Under the pieces are notes generated by a model, which was given only the letters and a program-made list of their open reading frames with translations, searched no databases and was not told where the DNA came from. From NCBI RefSeq assembly GCF_002754375.1, contig NZ_PEFF01000001.1:1860001-1924000 (forward strand): a stretch of DNA of 64,000 nucleotides, written 5' to 3'. This document shows, in pieces, positions 8,061-19,838 of this stretch. Source of the DNA: Variovorax sp. 54 (lineage in GTDB: Bacteria; Pseudomonadota; Gammaproteobacteria; Burkholderiales; Burkholderiaceae_C). A program made the position numbers and the translations under genes. Positions within the stretch are counted from its first letter, which is position 1, and every line of letters starts with the position of its first letter.

Positions 8061-8852
8061 TCAGGCCTCGCGCGCACCACCCATCAGCAACCCCCGCAGC
8101 TTGCTGCGCAGCGGCGTCTCCTCGACCTCCTGCACACCCGCAGTCTCGCGCAGCGCGAAGTCGCGGCTGTCGGCGTTGTGCAGGTCGATCTCACGTACCA
8201 CCTGACCGTCCTTGTAGACGAAGGCCACGTCGGCCAGGGCGAGCACGTCCTCGATGTCGTGCGTGATCATCAACACCGGAATGCCCCACTGCTTGCGCAC
8301 CTGCGCCAGCTCGTTGCGCAGTTCGGCGCGCAGCATCGGGTTGAGCGCGGCAAAAGGCTCGTCGAGCAGCAGCACCTGCGGCTCGCAGGCCAGCGCACGG
8401 GCCAGCGCCACGCGCTGCTGCTGGCCGCCCGAGAGTTTCTGCGGCCGGCTGTCGGCCAGCGCGGCGAGGCCGAAGCTGGCCAGCAGCGCCTGCACGCGCT
8501 CGGCGTCGCGCGCCGGCAGCGTGCGGCGGTGCCACGCCGTGAGCCCGAAGGCCACGTTCTCGCGCACCGTGAGGTGCGGGAACAGCGCGTAGTTCTGGAA
8601 CAGGTAGCCGATGCGGCGCGCCGGCGCGGGCACGTCGATGCGCTGCGCTGCGTCGTACAGCGTGCGGCCGTCGAGCCGCACATGGCCCGCCGTCGGATGC
8701 AGCAGGCCGGCGATGGCCTGCAGGGTCAGCGACTTGCCGGCCCCCGAGGGGCCGTAGAGCGCAGCAAAGGGAACGTCGGTCTGGAAGCGCACGGCGAGGT
8801 CGAAGCGCCGGGCCCCGTCCTTCACCGTGAGCTGCAGATCGACATCGATCAT
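8061..8852 (-). CDS. modC: Molybdate ABC transporter ATP-binding protein (short, no TOBE domain)
   Basis: This is the ATPase of the molybdate importer. It has Walker A GPSGAGKS at residues 34-41, a LSGGQQQR signature, Walker B LLLDEP and an H-loop in MITHDIEDVL. At 263 residues it ends soon after the ATPase core, whereas typical ModC is about 350 residues and carries a C-terminal molybdate-sensing TOBE/MOP domain. That domain is absent here. The start overlaps the modA stop by four bases, so it is the last gene of a modB-modA-modC operon. The assignment to molybdate rests on the ModA neighbour. Confidence 0.9.
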   Translation of the reverse strand: MIDVDLQLTVKDGARRFDLAVRFQTDVPFAALYGPSGAGKSLTLQAIAGLLHPTAGHVRLDGRTLYDAAQRIDVPAPARRIGYLFQNYALFPHLTVRENVAFGLTAWHRRTLPARDAERVQALLASFGLAALADSRPQKLSGGQQQRVALARALACEPQVLLLDEPFAALNPMLRAELRNELAQVRKQWGIPVLMITHDIEDVLALADVAFVYKDGQVVREIDLHNADSRDFALRETAGVQEVEETPLRSKLRGLLMGGAREA

Positions 8853-9598
8853 GGCTTGCCGAAACCGTAGCGCGTGAGCACTTCCTGGGCGGCGGGCGTC
8901 GACAGGAAGGCGATGAAGTCGCCGGCCAGCGCCTTCTGCTTGCTGTCGGCCACCACGGCGATCGGGTACGTCACGGGCGTGTGGCCGGTGGGTGTGAAGG
9001 CGACCTTGACCTTGTCGCCGGCCACGGCCGCGTCGGTGCGGTAGACAAAGCCGGCCTCGACCTCGCCGCGGCTCACGTAGTCGAGCACTTGGCGCACGCT
9101 GTCGGCCTGCACGAACTTAGGTTCGAGCGCGGTCCACAGGTTGGCGTTGTCCAGCACCTGCTTGGTGTAGCGGCCGACCGGCACGGTGGCGGTCTTGCCG
9201 ACGGCGATCCGCTTCACGCTGGCTCCGCTCAGGTCTTGCAGCGACTTCAGGCCGACGGCGCCCTGCGCAGGCTCGACCAGCACCAGGCTGTTGGTGACGA
9301 AGTCCTTGCGGGTGGCGGTGTCGATGAGCTTCTGGTCGTTGCCGCGGTTCATCGTTTCCTGGTCGGCGCTCGCGAACACGTCGACCGGCGCGCCCTGGCC
9401 GATCTGCTGCAGCAGCACGCCCGAGGCGGCGAAGTTGAAGCGCACGGTGCTGCCCGCCTTGGCGGCTTCGAACTTGGGACCGATTTCCTTGAACGCGTCG
9501 GTCAGGCTCGCAGCAGCGGACACGGTGATCTGCTGCGCGGCGGCCGCGAACGGCAGGGCCAGGGCGAGCACGAGGGACAAGAGGCGGAACGGACGCAT
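8849..9598 (-). CDS. modA: Molybdate-binding periplasmic protein
   Basis: This is the receptor that delivers molybdate or tungstate to the ModB channel. From the ATG at 9598 it has 249 residues and a clear signal peptide (MRPFRLLSLVLALALPFAAA, cut near residue 21). That start is preceded by an AGGAGA ribosome-binding site; the longer open frame to 9670 would bury the signal peptide. The mature part begins ITVSAAASLTDAFKEIG, the usual ModA opening with the ligand serines, and contains GAPVDVFASAD and GEVEAGFVYRTDA as in the family. Confidence 0.94.
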   Translation of the reverse strand: MRPFRLLSLVLALALPFAAAAQQITVSAAASLTDAFKEIGPKFEAAKAGSTVRFNFAASGVLLQQIGQGAPVDVFASADQETMNRGNDQKLIDTATRKDFVTNSLVLVEPAQGAVGLKSLQDLSGASVKRIAVGKTATVPVGRYTKQVLDNANLWTALEPKFVQADSVRQVLDYVSRGEVEAGFVYRTDAAVAGDKVKVAFTPTGHTPVTYPIAVVADSKQKALAGDFIAFLSTPAAQEVLTRYGFGKP

Positions 9599-9626
9599 GG
9601 CAAGAGTCTCCTGGAAAAAGTGGAAA

Positions 9627-10313
9627 TCAACGAAGCGAAAAGAATCGGTTGGACACGACCAGCACGGCAATCGACAGCACCGACGTGACGACGACCAGCA
9701 GCAGCGCCAGGTCGTCGTGGCCGGCCTGCACGGCGTCGTAGATGGCCATCGACAGGGTCTGGGTCTGCTTGGGAATGGAGCCGGCCACCATCAGCGAGGC
9801 ACCGAACTCGCCCATGGCGCGCGCGAACGCGAGCAGCGTGCCGGCCAGGATGCCGGGCCAGGCCAGCGGCAGCGTGACGCGCAGGAACACCGAGAACGGC
9901 GACTGGCGCAAGGTGCTCGCGGCGGCTTCGAGCGAGCGGTCGACGTTCGAGAACGCCGCGCTGGCCGACTTGAGCACCAGCGGCAGCGCAACCACGGCCG
10001 AGGCCACCACGGCGCCGTGCCAGCTGAAGATGATGGTGTAGTCGAAGTGCTCGCGCAGCCACGCGCCGAGCGGGCTGCGCCGCCCCGCCGCCACCAGGAT
10101 GGCGTAGCCGATCACCGTGGGCGGCAGCACCAGCGGCAGCATGAACACGGCCTCGAGCACGCCCGAGCCGACGAACTGCTTGCGCGCGAACACCCAGCCC
10201 AGCGCCACGCCCGCGATCAGCGCCAACAAGGTCGCGACCGCCGCGACCTGCAGCGACAGGACCAGCGGAGACCAGTCGGTGGTGGCGATGAGCGAAGCGG
10301 TCGTCGTGTTCAT
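9627..10313 (-). CDS. modB: Molybdate ABC transporter permease
   Basis: This is the inner-membrane channel subunit, 228 residues with about five to six hydrophobic segments. It contains MLPLVLPPTVIGY and the permease signature region ending GEFGASLMVAGS, both highly typical of ModB. It is the first gene of the operon, so the order is modB-modA-modC rather than the common modABC. The promoter must lie between 10314 and the divergent small gene at 10429, where a ModE-box-like palindrome is visible (10381-10404). Confidence 0.94.
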   Translation of the reverse strand: MNTTTASLIATTDWSPLVLSLQVAAVATLLALIAGVALGWVFARKQFVGSGVLEAVFMLPLVLPPTVIGYAILVAAGRRSPLGAWLREHFDYTIIFSWHGAVVASAVVALPLVLKSASAAFSNVDRSLEAAASTLRQSPFSVFLRVTLPLAWPGILAGTLLAFARAMGEFGASLMVAGSIPKQTQTLSMAIYDAVQAGHDDLALLLVVVTSVLSIAVLVVSNRFFSLR

Positions 10314-11354: not shown

Positions 11355-11812
11355 TCGAGCCGCGCGCCGAACCAGCCCACGCGCTCGGTCTCGCGCACGT
11401 CGAAGCGCGGCACGTAGGGCTTGATGTCGAGCACGGGCGTGCCGTCGAGCATGTCGTTGCCGCTGAAGTGCAGCGTGCTGCCTTCCACCGCCGTGAGCCG
11501 CACGATCGACAGGCCCAGCCGGTTGGGCCGCGCGGGCGCGCGCGTGGCGAACACGCCGTGCGTGGCGTCGTCGAGAAAGGGCACCACCTCGAGCCGTTCG
11601 TGTGCGCAGCGGTGCAGGTGCGTCACGAGGATCAGGTAGTCGAAGCCTTCGATGTCGCGCAGCCCCGATGCGAACTCGGCGAACACCTCGAGGCTGCCCG
11701 TTTCCTCGGGCGCGCCGGCCGTCTGGATGGGCATGCCCGAGGTCTCGGTGAAGCGGCTGCGCACGATGCCGATCGGGCGGCTGACGACGGGGTCGATGTC
11801 GGCGGCGTTCAT
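11315..11812 (-). CDS. trmO: tRNA (N6-threonylcarbamoyladenosine37-N6)-methyltransferase TrmO-like
   Basis: This 165-residue protein belongs to the TsaA/TrmO (YaeB) family, a single beta-barrel domain that uses S-adenosylmethionine to methylate t6A37 in tRNA. It begins VVSRPIGIVRSRF, then shows GLRDIEGFDYLILVTHLH, GVFATRAPARPNRLGLSIVRL and VLDIKPYVPRFD, all family landmarks. It is shorter than E. coli TrmO (235 residues), which has an extra C-terminal domain. The start overlaps the ModE-like stop by four bases, so it belongs to a modE-trmO unit. Its link to molybdenum genes may be only transcriptional. Confidence 0.85.
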   Translation of the reverse strand: MNAADIDPVVSRPIGIVRSRFTETSGMPIQTAGAPEETGSLEVFAEFASGLRDIEGFDYLILVTHLHRCAHERLEVVPFLDDATHGVFATRAPARPNRLGLSIVRLTAVEGSTLHFSGNDMLDGTPVLDIKPYVPRFDVRETERVGWFGARLDQLPRTRSDGRMD

Positions 11813-12156
11813 GGCGCGAGCAGCCGCGTGAGCGCGCGAACGTCGGCCGCGGTCGCGAGGCGCGCAGCGTTCTCGATGGCGCGGTAGCGCTTCACGATGT
11901 CCTCGCCCACCGGCGTGAGCGCCGTGCCGCCGCCGCGCGAGCCGCCGGCTGCCGTGTTCACGGCCGGCGAAGCCAGCGTCTGGTTCATTTCGTCGATCAG
12001 CATCCACGCGCGGCGGTACGACATGCCGAGCAGGCGGGCCGCCGCCGAGATCGAGCCGGTCTCGGCCACGGCTTCGAGCACGGCGATCTTGCCGGGGCCG
12101 ATGGCGATGGTGTCGTCCCGGTAGATGCGCAGGCGGAACTGGGCTTTGGATTTCAT
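11809..12156 (-). CDS. ModE-like one-domain winged-helix regulator (no molybdate-binding domain)
   Basis: This protein matches the N-terminal DNA-binding half of ModE. It has 115 residues from the ATG at 12156 and contains GPGKIAVLEAVAETGSISA, then AARLLGMSYRRAWMLIDEMN (recognition helix) and GGGTALTPVGEDIVKRY. Full ModE carries a second half with two MOP domains that sense molybdate; that half is missing and no separate molbindin gene is visible. It probably acts on the nearby mod or fdh genes. It lies between a LysR gene and trmO on one strand with a four-base overlap to trmO. Confidence 0.85.
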   Translation of the reverse strand: MKSKAQFRLRIYRDDTIAIGPGKIAVLEAVAETGSISAAARLLGMSYRRAWMLIDEMNQTLASPAVNTAAGGSRGGGTALTPVGEDIVKRYRAIENAARLATAADVRALTRLLAP

Positions 12157-12200
12157 GATGGCGCGAAGGGTAAACCATCCGGGTGCCATCGGGCACCCAG

Positions 12201-15622: not shown

Positions 15623-18067
15623 TCACCCCGCTTCGTCCACCAACCCCAGAACCACATCCATCAGCACATTCGCGCCCTGCACCAGGTCGGCGCTCGCCGT
15701 GTGCTCTTTCGGGTTGTGGCTGATGCCGCGCACGCTCGGCACGAAGATCATGGCGGCGGGCGCGATGCGCGCCATCATCTGCGCGTCGTGGCCCGCACCT
15801 GAGGTCATGCGGCGGTGGCTCAGGCCGCGTGCATGCGCACTGGCTTCGATGACGCGCACCAGCCGCTCGTCGAAGGGCACTGGCTCGAAGCGCGCCAGCG
15901 TGCGGGCTTCGACGGTCACGCCTTCGGTCGCTTCGAGTTGCCGCAGGTAGTTCGCGAGTTCGCCTTCGGCCGCCTGCAGCATCGCCTCGTCGGTGTTGCG
16001 CAGGTCGACCGTGAGTGTGGCGCGCGCCGCGATCACGTTGATGAGGTTGGGGTGCAGGTCGATCGCACCGACGGTTGCGACCTGGCTGCCGCCGTAGCGT
16101 CGCGCCAGCTCGCGCACGAACACCGCGATGGCGGCGGCGCAGTAGCCGGCGTCGTGGCGCAGGCGCATCGGCGTGGTGCCCGCGTGGTTCGACTGGCCGG
16201 TGACGACGATCTCCTGCCATGAGATGCCCTGCAGGTCGGCCACCGCGCCGATGGTGATGCCTTCGGCCTCCAGCACCGGGCCCTGCTCGATGTGCAGCTC
16301 GACAAACGCATGCGGCACCAGCGTGCCGCAGGGCATGTCGCCCGCGTAGCCGATGCGCGCGAGTTCGTCGCCCAGCCGCGCGCCGTCGGTGGCGACGGTG
16401 TCGAGCGCGGCATCGAGCGCCAGGCCGCCCGCATGCACCAGCGAGCCCAGCATGTCGGGCATGAAGCGCACGCCCTCCTCGTTGGTGAAGGCGGCGACCA
16501 CGAAGGGGCGCAGCGTCTGGCGCTGGCGTTCGTTGAGCCAGCGCACCACCTCGAGGCCGGCCATCACGCCGTAGTTGCCGTCGTAGCGCCCGCCCGTGGC
16601 GACGGTGTCGATGTGCGAGCCGGTCATCACAGGTTTTGCACCGGGCCGTTGGCCGGGGCGGATGCCGAAGATGTTGCCGATGCGGTCGATGCGCACCGTG
16701 AGGCCCAGGTCTCGCATCCACTGCACGAGCTGGTCGCGGCCTGCGCGGTCGGCGTCGGTGAGTGCGATGCGGCAGACGCCGCCTTGCGCGGTCGCGCCGA
16801 TGGCGGCATGGTCGTCGATGCGCGCCATCAGCGCCGCTTCAGCGATGCCTTCGCGTTGCAGCCATTGCGTCTGCGCCGTCACGACTTCTTCGCCCCAGCG
16901 ACCGGTCAGCGCGCGGTACACGCCGGGCGCGGTCGCGCCCTCGGTGCTGAACAGCAGCACGCGCGAGCTGGCGTCGAGGCCGGCGGTGCGCGCCAGTTCG
17001 GGATCGGCCGCGAGCACCTGCAGCGCAGCCAAGCCTGCAGCGCCGGATTCGCCGACCAGCACGGGCACGTCGCCCGCCTCGCCGGTGGCGAAGGTGCGCA
17101 TGGCGTGTTCAGCGTCGGCATCGGTGACGGTCATGAAGAGGTCGACGGAGGGCTGCAGAAAGCGCCACGCGAGCGGTGAGGTCTCGCCGCAGGCCAGCCC
17201 GGCCATCACGGAGTCGACGCTGCCGGTGGCGCGGTCGGGGCGGCCGCTGCGCGCGCTTTGCAGCAGGCAGTCGGCCTGCTCGGGCTCGACGACGATGAGC
17301 GTCGGGCGCGCGGCGCCGTAGCGCTCCCAGACATGGCTGGCCACGCCGGCTGCGAGCCCGCCGACGCCGCCTTGCACGATGACGTGGGTGAAGGGGCACG
17401 GCGCGCCGGGCGCGGTGTTCTCCAGCAGCTCGTCGACGAGGATGCCGTAGCCCTGCATCACGTCGCGCGGAATCTCTTCGTAGCCTTCGTAGGAGGTGTC
17501 GGAGACCACCTCCCAGCCATTCGCCTGAGCCAGGCGCGCGGCCTCCTCCACCGAGGCGTCGTAGTTGCCGGCGATGCGCACGATCTCGGCGCCGAGCGCG
17601 GCGATGGGCGCCTCGCGCTCTTCGCTGACCTGGGCGTGCAGCACGATCACGCAGCGGCAGCCCATGCTCTGCGCGGCCGCGGCCAGTGCGCGGCCATGGT
17701 TGCCGTCGGTCGCGCTGATGACGACGAAGTCGCGCAGCGCTGCGGCGTGCCGGCCCGCGAACAGGTCGGCCGGCGTCCAGCCCCGGTCGGGCCAGCGGCG
17801 CAGCACCAGGCGCAGCAAGGCCACCGGCGCGCCGAGCACCTTGAAGCTGCCGAGCGCGGAGCGGCGCGATTCGTCTTTCACGACGACCTGCGCGATGCCC
17901 AGTTGTGCCGCGAGCCGGGGCAAGCGCCACGCGGGTGTCGGCTGCGGCGCGAGCCGGTCCCAGGTGGACAGCCACTGGCGGCTCTCGCGGCCGCGTGCGA
18001 TGTTCATGACGGCCTGCAGGGCCGCGTCGTAGCCGCGCCGTTGCGCGTGAGGGTTGGCGAAGAGCAT
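15623..18067 (-). CDS. Fusion of diaminopropionate ammonia-lyase and hydantoinase/carbamoylase-type hydrolase
   Basis: One uninterrupted 814-residue frame joins two enzymes. Residues 1-390 are a fold-type II PLP enzyme of the diaminopropionate ammonia-lyase type, with Lys76 in ALGSFKVLG as PLP anchor, SATDGNHGRAL and a phosphate loop QGGVGGLA. Residues about 405-814 are an M20-family Zn amidohydrolase of the allantoate/ureidopropionase/carbamoylase group, with metal residues His485 (GSHIDT), Asp496 (GRYDGNYG), Glu530/531, His592 (LHIEQGP) and a late His in SGAGHDA, all intact. The linker is only about 15 residues. E. coli keeps separate ygeX (lyase) and ygeY (hydrolase) side by side, so the fusion follows a known neighbourhood. 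A start inside the linker (16828) could also yield the hydrolase alone. Confidence 0.9.
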   Translation of the reverse strand: MLFANPHAQRRGYDAALQAVMNIARGRESRQWLSTWDRLAPQPTPAWRLPRLAAQLGIAQVVVKDESRRSALGSFKVLGAPVALLRLVLRRWPDRGWTPADLFAGRHAAALRDFVVISATDGNHGRALAAAAQSMGCRCVIVLHAQVSEEREAPIAALGAEIVRIAGNYDASVEEAARLAQANGWEVVSDTSYEGYEEIPRDVMQGYGILVDELLENTAPGAPCPFTHVIVQGGVGGLAAGVASHVWERYGAARPTLIVVEPEQADCLLQSARSGRPDRATGSVDSVMAGLACGETSPLAWRFLQPSVDLFMTVTDADAEHAMRTFATGEAGDVPVLVGESGAAGLAALQVLAADPELARTAGLDASSRVLLFSTEGATAPGVYRALTGRWGEEVVTAQTQWLQREGIAEAALMARIDDHAAIGATAQGGVCRIALTDADRAGRDQLVQWMRDLGLTVRIDRIGNIFGIRPGQRPGAKPVMTGSHIDTVATGGRYDGNYGVMAGLEVVRWLNERQRQTLRPFVVAAFTNEEGVRFMPDMLGSLVHAGGLALDAALDTVATDGARLGDELARIGYAGDMPCGTLVPHAFVELHIEQGPVLEAEGITIGAVADLQGISWQEIVVTGQSNHAGTTPMRLRHDAGYCAAAIAVFVRELARRYGGSQVATVGAIDLHPNLINVIAARATLTVDLRNTDEAMLQAAEGELANYLRQLEATEGVTVEARTLARFEPVPFDERLVRVIEASAHARGLSHRRMTSGAGHDAQMMARIAPAAMIFVPSVRGISHNPKEHTASADLVQGANVLMDVVLGLVDEAG

Positions 18068-18095: not shown

Positions 18096-19277
18096 TCAGG
18101 CGGCGGTGCGCACGGGAAGCCGCAGCCGCACGATCTCCGCGAAATAGCGCGCGCCCGTGGTCAGCACCGCGTCGTTGAAGTCGTAGCGGCCGTTGTGCAG
18201 CGGCGTGCCGCCGGGCTCGCCCTCGGCGCCGTTGCCCAGGAAGACGAAGGCGCCCGGCACGGCGCGCAGGAAGGCGCCGAAGTCTTCCGAGATCATCATC
18301 GGCGCGACGTTGGCATCGACCTTCTCTGCGCCCACCACGGCCGTGGCGGCGGCCACCGCGGTCGGCACGCATTCGGCCCAGTTCACGGTGGGCGCGAACT
18401 CGTGCGTGTAGCTGAACGTGCAGTCCGCACCGTGCATGCGGCAGATGCTTTCGCTGATCTCGCGCATGCGCGCCTCCAGCATGCGCTGCACGGCGGGGTC
18501 GTAGCTGCGCGTGTCGCCCTTGATGACCACGTTCGACGGAATCGCGTTGCGGATGCCGTCGGTGATGAACTCGGTGCACGACACCACGGCCTGCGCGCCG
18601 GGATCGAGCGTGCGTGAGACGATGGTCTGCAGCGCCAGCACGATCTGCGCGCCGATCACGATCGGGTCGATGCCCATGTGCGGTCGCGCGGCGTGCGTGC
18701 CCCGGCCGTGGATGTGGATGACGAAGTTGTCTTCGCTCGCCATCAGGCCACCCGCGCGCGTGGCGAAGGTGCCGGCAGGCAGGCCGGGCATGTTGTGCAG
18801 GCCGTAGATCTCGTCGGCCGGAAAGCGCGTGAACAGGCCGTCTTCCATCATCGCGCGGGCGCCGCGGCCGTGCTCTTCGGCGGGCTGGAAGATGAAGCGC
18901 ACGGTGCCGTCGAAATCGCGCCGCTCGCGCAGCAGCTGCGCCGCGCCGAGCACCATCGCCATGTGACCGTCGTGGCCGCAGGCGTGCATGCGCCCGGGCG
19001 TGCCGGAAGCGTAGGGCCGCTCGGTTGCCAGCTCGGTGATGGCGAGCGCGTCCATCTCGGCGCGCAGGCCGATCACGCCCGTTCCGCTGCCCACCGTGAG
19101 GCTGGCGACCAGCCCGGTGCCGCCGATGCCGGTGTGCACCTCGAGCCCCAGCGCCCGCAGCGCGTTGGCAATGAAGGCCGAGGTTTTTGCTTCCTCGAAG
19201 CCGGTCTCGGGCATCGCATGCAGCTGGTGCCGCCAACCGGCCAGCTGGTCGCGCAGGGGGTGGTCTGGAAACTTCAT
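18096..19277 (-). CDS. M20 aminoacylase/amidohydrolase
   Basis: This is a 393-residue Zn-dependent amidohydrolase of the hippurate hydrolase/N-acyl amino acid hydrolase type. Metal and catalytic residues are present: Cys100 in HACGHDGH, the Glu pair in QPAEEHGRG at about 133-136, and the C-terminal SEDFGAFL. A dimerisation lid (FVIHIHGRGTHAARPHMG) lies in the middle. It is 28 bases upstream of the fusion gene on the same strand, so the two form one operon. That pairing suggests removal of an acyl group followed by deamination or decarbamoylation of an amino-acid-like compound. The exact substrate is unknown. Confidence 0.92.
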   Translation of the reverse strand: MKFPDHPLRDQLAGWRHQLHAMPETGFEEAKTSAFIANALRALGLEVHTGIGGTGLVASLTVGSGTGVIGLRAEMDALAITELATERPYASGTPGRMHACGHDGHMAMVLGAAQLLRERRDFDGTVRFIFQPAEEHGRGARAMMEDGLFTRFPADEIYGLHNMPGLPAGTFATRAGGLMASEDNFVIHIHGRGTHAARPHMGIDPIVIGAQIVLALQTIVSRTLDPGAQAVVSCTEFITDGIRNAIPSNVVIKGDTRSYDPAVQRMLEARMREISESICRMHGADCTFSYTHEFAPTVNWAECVPTAVAAATAVVGAEKVDANVAPMMISEDFGAFLRAVPGAFVFLGNGAEGEPGGTPLHNGRYDFNDAVLTTGARYFAEIVRLRLPVRTAA

Positions 19278-19330: not shown

Positions 19331-19349
19331 CACGCAACGTTTTTGCGTG
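19331..19349. promoter_or_regulatory. Perfect inverted repeat in the Lrp/aminoacylase divergent region
   Basis: CACGCAA (19331-19337) and TTGCGTG (19343-19349) form a perfect 7-bp inverted repeat with a 5-bp spacer. It lies 16 bases before the chosen lrp start and 54 bases upstream of the aminoacylase start. Position and symmetry fit an operator for the Lrp-type regulator acting on itself and on the divergent operon. Confidence 0.5.
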
Positions 19350-19364
19350 AAGCCTTTTCTTTTC

Positions 19365-19838
19365 ATGACGCCCCTCGACGCCCTCGACCTGCACCTGCTG
19401 GAACTGATCCAGGCCGACAGCCGCCTCTCGCAGGGCGAACTCGGCGAGCGCATCCACCTGTCGACGGCGGCGGTGAACCGCCGGCTCAAGCGCCTGCGCG
19501 ACGAGGGCGTGATCCAGCGCCACGGCGCCGTGCTGTCGCCGGCCGCGCTCGGGCACCCACTCACCATCGTGGTCGAGGTCGAGGCCGAGAGCGAGCAGAT
19601 CGAACGGCTCGACGCCATGAAGCAGAGCTTTCGCGACTGCCCACAGGTGCAGCAGTGCTACTACGTGACGGGCGAGTGGGACTTCATCCTCGTGTGCGTG
19701 GTGCGCGACATGGCGCAGTACACGGCACTCACCCGCCAGCTGTTTTTCCAGAGCAACAACGTCAAGCGCTTTCGCACGCTGGTGACGATGGACCCGGTGA
19801 AGGTGAGCCTGGATGTGCCGGTGTCGGTGGGGGGCTGA
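19365..19838 (+). CDS. Lrp/AsnC-family transcriptional regulator
   Basis: This regulator has 157 residues from the ATG at 19365; a GTG at 19347 would add six residues but lies within a palindrome. It has the typical HTH (LDLHLLELIQADSRLSQGEL, with recognition helix in TAAVNRRLKRLRDEGVI) and a C-terminal RAM ligand-binding domain (PLTIVVEVEAESEQIERLDA). Lrp-like regulators usually sense an amino acid and control adjacent catabolic genes. It is divergent from the aminoacylase and lyase-hydrolase fusion operon, so it most likely controls their induction. Confidence 0.9.
   Translation: MTPLDALDLHLLELIQADSRLSQGELGERIHLSTAAVNRRLKRLRDEGVIQRHGAVLSPAALGHPLTIVVEVEAESEQIERLDAMKQSFRDCPQVQQCYYVTGEWDFILVCVVRDMAQYTALTRQLFFQSNNVKRFRTLVTMDPVKVSLDVPVSVGG

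What the first reader, a model, noticed from the sequence alone, without database searches (positions are those of the whole stretch)
15623..18067. Natural fusion of diaminopropionate ammonia-lyase with a carbamoylase-type M20 hydrolase
A single uninterrupted frame of 814 residues contains a full PLP lyase (Lys76, SATDGNHG, QGGVGGLA) and a full Zn hydrolase (His485, Asp496, Glu530/531, His592) with only a short linker. All catalytic residues seem intact in both halves. E. coli has the two as neighbours (ygeX, ygeY) in a purine/amino-acid catabolic cluster, so fusion implies a shared pathway and perhaps passage of an intermediate from one active site to the other. The adjoining M20 aminoacylase and Lrp regulator point to breakdown of an acylated or carbamoylated amino acid.
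Basis: partly seen in the sequence, partly recalled or inferred. Interest (0 to 1): 0.75.

Follow-up and report, generated by a model that had tools for sequence, protein, structure and literature searches.

The report
Fused carbamoylase and diaminopropionate lyase enzyme
A soil bacterium carries one gene that joins two normally separate enzymes, one that probably strips a urea-type group off a small amino acid and one that then breaks the product, diaminopropionate, down to pyruvate and ammonia; the fusion is real and shared by many relatives but its substrate has not been tested.

Summary
Confirmed: the minus-strand ORF 15623-18067 (814 aa) is a true fusion, diaminopropionate ammonia-lyase (DAPAL) then an M20 carbamoylase-family hydrolase, with the catalytic residues intact. 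It is no artefact: 25 of 80 related loci are fused and the 120 database proteins listed carry both domains. I saw it only in Burkholderiales-type lineages and, as a probable second origin, in Acrocarpospora; elsewhere the genes are often neighbours, in either order. Correction: the hydrolase is not YgeY but the AllC/beta-ureidopropionase/L-carbamoylase kind, so it parallels E. coli YgeY-YgeX with a different hydrolase. The fused clade tends to lie with an M20 N-acyl-amino-acid deacylase and an Lrp regulator, as here; a neighbouring hydrolase clade lies with an N-carbamoyl-D-amino-acid hydrolase and sometimes purine-type genes. Best reading: a carbamoyl-diaminopropionate (albizziin or isomer) is hydrolysed to diaminopropionate, which the lyase turns into pyruvate and ammonia; the deacylase feeds the same pool. 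Substrate and channelling are inferred. Against fixed coupling: four genomes with an unfused lyase of this clade lack a close carbamoylase, and six of eight genomes tested have the hydrolase without a DAPAL over cut-off. A new variant of known enzymes.

The parts
15623..18067 (-). Fused gene, 814 aa: DAPAL domain then M20 carbamoylase-family domain
   Evidence: found as one frame in relatives
16898..18061 (-). DAPAL domain, residues 3-390; PLP lysine K76, aspartates D121 and D190
   Evidence: NF006058 477.8 bits over cut-off 276; K76, D121, D190 in 39 of 39
16847..16897 (-). Linker, residues 391-407; Y384 to L413 is 30 residues in 32 of 36 Burkholderiales-type fusions aligned, 14-19 in the three Acrocarpospora fusions
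15641..16846 (-). M20 hydantoinase/carbamoylase-family hydrolase domain, residues 408-809; H485, D496, E530, E531, H592, H628, N677, R690, H760, H784; subfamily mark D538
   Evidence: TIGR01879 402.2 bits over 204, PRK09290.1-3 469.1 over 452; residues in 38 or 39 of 39; D538 in 85 of 85
18096..19277 (-). M20 N-acyl-amino-acid deacylase (YxeP/ILR1-like), 393 aa, 28 bases upstream of the fused gene, probably same operon
   Evidence: TIGR01891 342.7 bits over 153.75; PDB 1ysj YxeP 227 bits, 6slf aminoacylase 169 bits; spacing
19347..19838 (+). Lrp/AsnC-family regulator, divergent from the deacylase-fusion pair
   Evidence: PF01037 and PF13412

Best explanation
The gene encodes one bifunctional catabolic enzyme. 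The C-terminal M20 domain removes the carbamoyl group of an N-carbamoyl-2,3-diaminopropionate, most likely the 3-ureido group of albizziin (2-amino-3-ureidopropionate), giving CO2, ammonia and 2,3-diaminopropionate. The N-terminal PLP domain cleaves diaminopropionate to pyruvate and two ammonia. The co-directional M20 deacylase supplies the same pool from N-acyl derivatives, and the divergent Lrp-type protein controls the operon. Joining the two keeps free diaminopropionate low. Shown: the fusion, the domains, the conserved catalytic residues, the recurring gene partners. Inferred: the substrate, its stereochemistry, the operon, the regulation, any benefit from proximity.
For: Both domains score over curated cut-offs, with catalytic residues conserved in 38 or 39 of 39 fusions. 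The genes are often adjacent where not fused, in both orders: 25 of 80 loci lyase-then-hydrolase (15 with a 4-base overlap), four of 80 hydrolase-then-lyase; order also varies on plasmids. The same hydrolase clade sits beside at least three lyase lineages, one of them a long branch. A second fusion in the same domain order in Acrocarpospora. A deacylase orthologue in 16 of 18 family genomes with a lyase at least 62% identical, against 1 of the other 182; within 265 bases of it in 14. A neighbouring hydrolase clade sits with an N-carbamoyl-D-amino-acid-hydrolase family (one member tested) in 32 of 39 mapped loci, and in one plasmid with a dihydropyrimidinase, as expected for stepwise removal of two ureido groups. 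Purified E. coli YgeY plus YgeX turn albizziin into pyruvate (PMC12507026, first part of the results read), so the chemistry exists. A 44%-identical paralogue in this genome lies beside a D-hydantoinase-model gene, near a partial YgfK-model match that I take for a pyrimidine cluster, so beta-ureido cleavage fits the fold.
Against: I found no measured activity for any close member. Four genomes with an unfused lyase of this clade lack a close carbamoylase (best 44% or less), so diaminopropionate also arises otherwise. Hydrolases about 60-63% identical occur without a DAPAL over cut-off in 5 of 5 Acidimicrobiales-type genomes, and likewise in that of L044; these are small or draft genomes of unknown completeness. 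The stricter DAPAL models TIGR03528 (291 of 532 bits) and TIGR01747 (263 of 274) are not met. The best hydrolase subfamily model is named 'allantoate amidohydrolase'.
Confidence: 0.55

Rival explanations
1. The hydrolase domain removes another N-substituent of diaminopropionate, for instance the oxalyl group of plant beta-ODAP or an N-acetyl group, rather than a carbamoyl group; the rest of the scheme holds.
For: In the same family of genomes the steadier partner of the lyase is a deacylase. The domain carries D538, which is absent from AllC, from three paralogues of this genome and from the five PDB matches shown, so its substrate may differ from theirs.
Against: Among the rows shown, the relatives with a specific name (8c46, 8apz, 3n5f, beta-alanine synthases, allantoate and ureidoglycolate hydrolases, ErtE) act on carbamoyl or ureido compounds; others are unspecific 'deacylase', 'amidase' or 'Zn-dependent hydrolase'.
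Confidence: 0.2
2. The enzyme is the last part of a reductive urate (purine) pathway like that of E. coli, acting on 2,3-diureidopropionate and its products.
For: Hydrolases of the neighbouring clade lie with N-carbamoyl-D-amino-acid hydrolase, XdhD-like, SsnA-like and F420-reductase genes; a rhizobial plasmid adds dihydropyrimidinase. This genome has two D-hydantoinase genes over cut-off.
Against: This genome has no SsnA over cut-off (152.6 of 455.5 bits), no YgfK over cut-off (194.2 of 835.3) and no close D-carbamoylase (best 58 bits). 0 of 31 mapped clade-A loci have the D-carbamoylase neighbour.
Confidence: 0.1
3. The hydrolase is an allantoate or general L-carbamoyl-amino-acid amidohydrolase, and the fusion only co-regulates two nitrogen-scavenging enzymes without a common intermediate.
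For: PRK09290.1-3 'allantoate amidohydrolase' subfamily is met (469.1 of 452 bits); lyase and hydrolase occur apart in some genomes.
Against: Repeated adjacency in different orders, association with several lyase lineages and two probable fusion origins would be odd for unrelated functions; the AllC equivalog TIGR03176 is not met (294.3 of 597.75 bits).
Confidence: 0.14
4. The single frame is a sequencing or assembly error joining two genes.
For: Many relatives have two genes with a 4-base overlap.
Against: Single frames over both domains in 25 loci from other records, two of them cut by a contig end, in nine other genomes of the 200 of the family, and both domains in the 120 proteins listed, with a nearly fixed linker length.
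Confidence: 0.01

Closest known systems
E. coli YgeX (diaminopropionate ammonia-lyase) with YgeY (peptidase-like hydrolase), reductive urate pathway
   Same: Same pair of reactions proposed: a hydrolase frees diaminopropionate, a PLP lyase makes pyruvate; lyase homologous (alignment; PDB 4d9g match 213 bits).
   Different: Hydrolase from a different M20 branch (26 bits to YgeY); fused; no SsnA or YgfK over cut-off and no close D-carbamoylase in this genome.
M20 hydantoinase/carbamoylase family (AllC, beta-ureidopropionase, L-N-carbamoylase)
   Same: Whole-domain match and metal/substrate residues; PDB 8c46 N-carbamoyl-beta-alanine amidohydrolase 312 bits, 8apz L-carbamoylase 299 bits, 1z2l AllC 229 bits.
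   Different: C-terminal to a lyase; D538 instead of Ala, Val or Thr in the relatives compared.
PRK13799 (NF010373), 'unknown domain/N-carbamoyl-L-amino acid hydrolase fusion protein'
   Same: A precedent for this M20 domain fused behind another domain; the hydrolase part matches at 229 bits.
   Different: Far under its cut-off of 1087 bits; its N-terminal domain is not matched here (match starts at profile position 190).
Unfused lyase-carbamoylase-deacylase-Lrp operons of rhizobia, Shinella, Burkholderia vietnamiensis and a Pseudomonas plasmid
   Same: Same four gene types.
   Different: Two separate genes, varying order.
Acrocarpospora DAPAL-M20 fusions (766-788 aa)
   Same: Same domain order.
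   Different: 43-45% identical, shorter linker, separate place in both trees.

Membership tests
Diaminopropionate ammonia-lyase (NF006058) | Curated HMM cut-off | tested here: met
   477.8 bits, cut-off 276
Diaminopropionate ammonia-lyase, equivalog TIGR03528 and subfamily TIGR01747 | Curated HMM cut-offs 532.25 and 274 bits | tested here: not met
   291.2 and 263.0 bits
Diaminopropionate ammonia-lyase | PLP lysine and the two active-site aspartates (roles recalled) | tested here: met
   K76, D121, D190 aligned to YgeX, identical in 39 of 39
Diaminopropionate ammonia-lyase | Pyruvate from D- or L-diaminopropionate | not testable with these tools
   needs enzyme assay
M20 hydantoinase/carbamoylase family (TIGR01879) | Curated HMM cut-off and metal ligands (ligand roles recalled) | tested here: met
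   402.2 bits, cut-off 204; H485, D496, E530, E531, H592 in 39 of 39, H784 in 38 of 39
Allantoate amidohydrolase AllC equivalog (TIGR03176) | Curated HMM cut-off 597.75 | tested here: not met
   294.3 bits
YgeY hydrolase family (NF009555, TIGR03526) | Homology to YgeY | tested here: not met
   not among the best 25 of 57 families shown; BLASTP 26 bits, E 0.001; E. coli YgeY itself scores 713.6 and 721.6
Reductive urate pathway | SsnA and YgfK in the same genome | tested here: not met
   152.6 of 455.5 bits; 194.2 of 835.3 bits
M20 N-acyl-amino-acid deacylase (TIGR01891), upstream gene | Curated HMM cut-off | tested here: met
   342.7 bits, cut-off 153.75
DoeB2 N2-acetyl-diaminobutanoate deacetylase (NF038260), upstream gene | Curated HMM cut-off 550 | tested here: not met
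   309.3 bits

The most novel reading that the evidence does not exclude
An oxygen-breathing soil lineage has its own albizziin-degrading enzyme: a carbamoylase of another branch than YgeY has been fused, at least twice in evolution, to a diaminopropionate lyase, so that the toxic diamino acid is consumed on the protein that makes it; the operon lets plant-associated bacteria use ureido- and acyl-diaminopropionates from plants or purines as nitrogen source.
Probability: 0.35. Interest if true: 0.62.

Novelty: new variant of a known kind. Interest (0 to 1): 0.45.

Why it matters
As far as I know, the physiological source of diaminopropionate for most bacterial DAPALs is unknown; the worked-out case that I found is the reductive urate pathway of gut bacteria published in 2025. 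A natural fusion that appears in two phyla names a likely immediate precursor (a carbamoylated diaminopropionate) for soil and plant-associated bacteria, and gives a single protein with which to test it and to test whether proximity protects the cell from diaminopropionate and 2-aminoacrylate.

Tried and rejected
YgeY-type hydrolase: rejected. Full reductive urate pathway in this genome: rejected on SsnA and YgfK under cut-off and no close D-carbamoylase; I had first expected it because hydrolases of the neighbouring clade lie in purine-like clusters, but the five such genomes searched have no DAPAL over cut-off. Obligatory carbamoylase-lyase coupling: rejected by lone-lyase genomes. Internal start for a separate hydrolase: ATG codon 414 exists but I see no ribosome-binding sequence at the usual spacing by eye. 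Lrp operator: only 7-base inverted repeats between the divergent genes, nothing to claim. Legume-host link of the plasmid hits (one search lists isolates from Mimosa, Leucaena and Calliandra, but also Trifolium, Phaseolus and soil): not pursued, sampling bias. D538 as a mark of the fused enzyme only: rejected, it is also in clade B and in 116 of 118 unfused hydrolases listed for the Acrocarpospora query. Q613 and I615 as subfamily marks: dropped, since Q613 is shared by the five PDB matches shown and I615 by one. An earlier count said the linker is 30 residues in 31 of 36; the right count is 32 of 36.
Full report
OBSERVATION. The frame lies on the minus strand of 15623-18067: 814 codons from ATG to stop (the plus strand holds stops). 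Residues 3-390 match the DAPAL model NF006058 at 477.8 bits (cut-off 276); residues 413-807 match the hydantoinase/carbamoylase model TIGR01879 at 402.2 (cut-off 204), and residues 408-808 the subfamily PRK09290.1-3 at 469.1 (cut-off 452). Stricter models are not met: TIGR03528 (291 of 532), TIGR01747 (263 of 274), AllC TIGR03176 (294 of 598). Pfam agrees. In an alignment of 39 fused proteins (the window's, 35 of the 120 listed, and three from Acrocarpospora), K76, D121, D190, H485, D487, D496, E530, E531, H592, H628 and N677 are identical in 39 of 39, R690, H760 and H784 in 38 of 39. Alignment with E. coli YgeX and AllC puts the PLP lysine and two aspartates, and the M20 metal and substrate residues, at equivalent places; the roles of these residues are recalled from the literature of the two families. 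The genome is a Variovorax by its nearest relatives (V. boronicumulans 96% identical over this protein).

HOW COMMON. The search of the large protein set scored 8000 candidates; 4214 pass E 1e-3 and the 120 listed all carry both Pfam domains. In genome contigs, 526 stretches encode a relative and the 80 best became loci: 25 fused (24 of the Burkholderiales type, some only titled Proteobacteria, and Acrocarpospora; two are cut by a contig end), 25 with lyase then hydrolase as neighbours on one strand (15 of them overlapping by 4 bases), 7 in other arrangements (four of these hydrolase-then-lyase neighbours, two lyase-then-hydrolase with broken or over-long frames, one on opposite strands), 19 hydrolase only, 4 lyase only. 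Because only the 80 best of 526 were kept, these shares describe the near relatives. Of 200 genomes of the same family, 10 hold the fusion, the own included. Of 300 genomes of the order only the window's own is fused, and of 398 of the phylum only the own and one of the same genus; the latter two used E 1e-110, share genomes with the first sample, and would miss weak cases. On plasmids, 58 records cover at least 80% of the query in one place; the 40 rows listed consist of two or three pieces each, so none of them is one uninterrupted match.

ORIGINS. In the lyase tree 24 Burkholderiales-type fused rows form one clade with 12 unfused ones (SH-aLRT 100), while the three Acrocarpospora fusions group with an unfused Streptomyces pair far away (100). 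In the hydrolase tree all 25 Burkholderiales-type fused rows fall in clade A (41 rows, SH-aLRT 96) together with unfused pairs of rhizobia, pseudomonads, Burkholderia and others; clade B (40 rows, 91) holds no fusion; Acrocarpospora is separate again (100). These are quick trees without bootstrap and with long branches flagged, so detail inside clades is unsure, and one gain plus later splits cannot be told from several gains inside Burkholderiales. The Acrocarpospora fusion is best read as a second event. Clade A hydrolases sit beside at least three lyase lineages (Burkholderiales type, rhizobial type, and that of Pantoea, L035, a long branch near YgeX), which speaks for a functional tie rather than mere inheritance.

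NEIGHBOURS. The window's set, Lrp | deacylase, fusion, recurs with the fused genes split: Lrp | lyase, carbamoylase, M20 aminoacylase in Shinella and rhizobia; Lrp | lyase, deacylase, carbamoylase with amino-acid transporters in B. vietnamiensis; Lrp | carbamoylase, lyase, an amino-acid symporter, YxeP-like deacylase in a Pseudomonas plasmid. Two plasmids have lyase, carbamoylase and an Lrp gene but no deacylase listed in the stretch read (the plasmid gene tables are incomplete). Of 31 mapped clade-A loci (the other 10 rows are the query and plasmid stretches), 18 have the deacylase family and 17 the Lrp family in the neighbourhood and 0 the D-carbamoylase family; six have none of the three, two of them on short contigs. 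Of 39 mapped clade-B loci, 32 have the D-carbamoylase family, 0 the deacylase or that Lrp family, seven have none. The families are single-linkage BLAST groups. The D-carbamoylase name rests on one member, L057, with a 408-bit match to a solved N-carbamoyl-D-amino-acid hydrolase, and on the depositor's name in L091; in NCBIfam the members tested reach only 100-119 bits to N-carbamoylputrescine amidase, under its cut-off. In the 200 family genomes an orthologue of the window's deacylase (E 1e-130) occurs in 16 of 18 with a lyase at least 62% identical and in 1 of the other 182 (Fisher 1.5e-20, not corrected for kinship), and lies within 265 bases of it in 14. I set the 62% line from the list; the next lyase, 57% in an incomplete genome, has no such deacylase, and counting it makes 16 of 19. 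Two of the deacylase matches hold one stop. The deacylase is nearest to YxeP, the plant IAA-amino-acid hydrolase homologue and an N-alpha-acyl-glutamine aminoacylase among solved structures. A table in the Neorhizobium galegae paper PMC4417242 (one passage seen) lists a DAPAL close to a hippurate hydrolase and an endoribonuclease L-PSP gene; tables in PMC8407117 (two passages seen) list a DAPAL among genes associated with nodule competitiveness of Sinorhizobium meliloti.

MECHANISM. Li et al. (PMC12507026; abstract and outline, first of three parts of the results, and discussion read) show that purified E. coli YgeY and YgeX convert albizziin to pyruvate at the end of urate reduction, and Percudani's commentary (PMC12990295, first of two parts read) notes that it is open whether the 2- or the 3-ureido group leaves first. 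The fused protein has the second enzyme of that pair and, instead of YgeY, an enzyme of the branch that cleaves ureido groups of allantoate, carbamoyl-beta-alanine and carbamoyl amino acids (names). Albizziin is carbamoyl-beta-alanine with an alpha-amino group, so the step is a small change of substrate; a 44%-identical paralogue in the same genome (2014425-2015597) lies directly after a dihydropyrimidinase-model gene and near a match to part of the YgfK model, which I take to be a reductive pyrimidine cluster (inference). Residues D538, Q613, I615 and A683 are each in 85 of 85 hydrolases of clades A, B and the actinobacterial group and absent from AllC and the three paralogues; of these D538 also differs from the five PDB matches shown, whereas Q613 does not. 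D538 lies just after the metal-binding glutamates and could hold the alpha-amino group, but that is a guess, and it is equally present in 116 of 118 unfused hydrolases listed for the Acrocarpospora query. DAPAL of Salmonella releases 2-aminoacrylate, a reactive enamine (passage of PMC9127364), and the title of a paper cited there says that diaminopropionate stresses Salmonella; keeping both steps on one protein would limit exposure. That benefit is inference.

LIMITS AND CONTRARY RESULTS. Four genomes with an unfused lyase of this clade (L038, L039, L040, L042) hold no close carbamoylase: best M20 relatives 44%, 39%, none at E 1e-60, and 41% identical. So the lyase also works without it, perhaps behind the deacylase, which is beside it in L040 and in the same stretch in L039, but not seen in L038 or L042. 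Conversely, of eight genomes chosen because no lyase lay beside the hydrolase, two have a DAPAL over cut-off (L055, L063) and six have none: five Acidimicrobiales-type genomes with hydrolases about 60-63% identical, and that of L044 (completeness not given). Carbamoylase and deacylase thus look like two optional entrances into a diaminopropionate pool rather than a fixed chain, and the hydrolase family may serve other substrates too. This genome has no SsnA or YgfK over cut-off and no close D-carbamoylase, so urate is an unlikely source here; plant ureido or acyl amino acids are more likely, without direct evidence. No structure model was obtained.

LITERATURE. No paper in the held library combines 'diaminopropionate ammonia' with 'carbamoylase' (0). 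'Diaminopropionate ammonia-lyase' occurs in 22 papers (listing read) and albizziin with bacteria in 18 (listing read); from these listings, and from those (12 of 23 shown; 9 of 10; 12 of 56; 6), I saw no description of the natural fusion. Subscription journals are mostly not held, so this is not proof of absence. Where a source names the listed proteins, it is after one half: allantoate amidohydrolase, N-carbamoyl-L-amino-acid hydrolase, beta-ureidopropionase or diaminopropionate ammonia-lyase.

VERDICT. A real, conserved bifunctional gene made of known parts, not described in the papers I could search: a new variant of a known kind.

Noticed in passing
L074 2342-13188 (same gene families in the same order in L070, L075-L078; partly in L072, L073, L079, L083): Acidimicrobiales-type cluster. 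In L074: xanthine dehydrogenase subunits (pucD 860 bits over cut-off), M20 carbamoylase, D-carbamoylase family, a protein close to the Se-dependent XDH model (809 of 830 bits), an SsnA-like amidohydrolase (268 of 444 bits), a mer-like F420 reductase and the start of an 8-oxoguanine deaminase. It looks like an F420-type reductive purine pathway with two ureido hydrolases, but five such genomes searched have no DAPAL over cut-off, so its end product is open.
   Followed up: partly
L091 2554-12352: Rhizobium plasmid: dihydropyrimidinase and ABC transporter divergent from DAPAL, M20 carbamoylase and a gene named N-carbamoyl-D-amino-acid hydrolase, a candidate aerobic diureidopropionate pathway.
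   Followed up: partly
L057 4202-5662 and the same family in L026, L030, L052, L054, L060, L062, L064: An amidohydrolase resembling D-aminoacylases by eye (L057 member: NF006560, 179 bits, under cut-off 340) beside the DAPAL-carbamoylase genes, with the D-carbamoylase family too in 7 of the 8, recalling UacY of C. difficile urate clusters.
   Followed up: no
genome positions G000:C1 2008694-2015597 (outside the window): Apparent reductive pyrimidine cluster: match to part of the YgfK model (probably dihydropyrimidine dehydrogenase), D-hydantoinase-model gene and an M20 carbamoylase paralogue 44% identical to the fused hydrolase.
   Followed up: partly
L088 3891-6398: Streptomyces shenzhenensis has the two domains as neighbouring frames 111 bases apart although it groups inside the fused Acrocarpospora clade: a later split, or a broken frame.
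   Followed up: no
window 8061-10313 and 11809-12189: By eye, genes resembling a molybdate ABC transporter (ATPase, binding protein, permease) and a ModE-like regulator; names recalled, no family search made.
   Followed up: no
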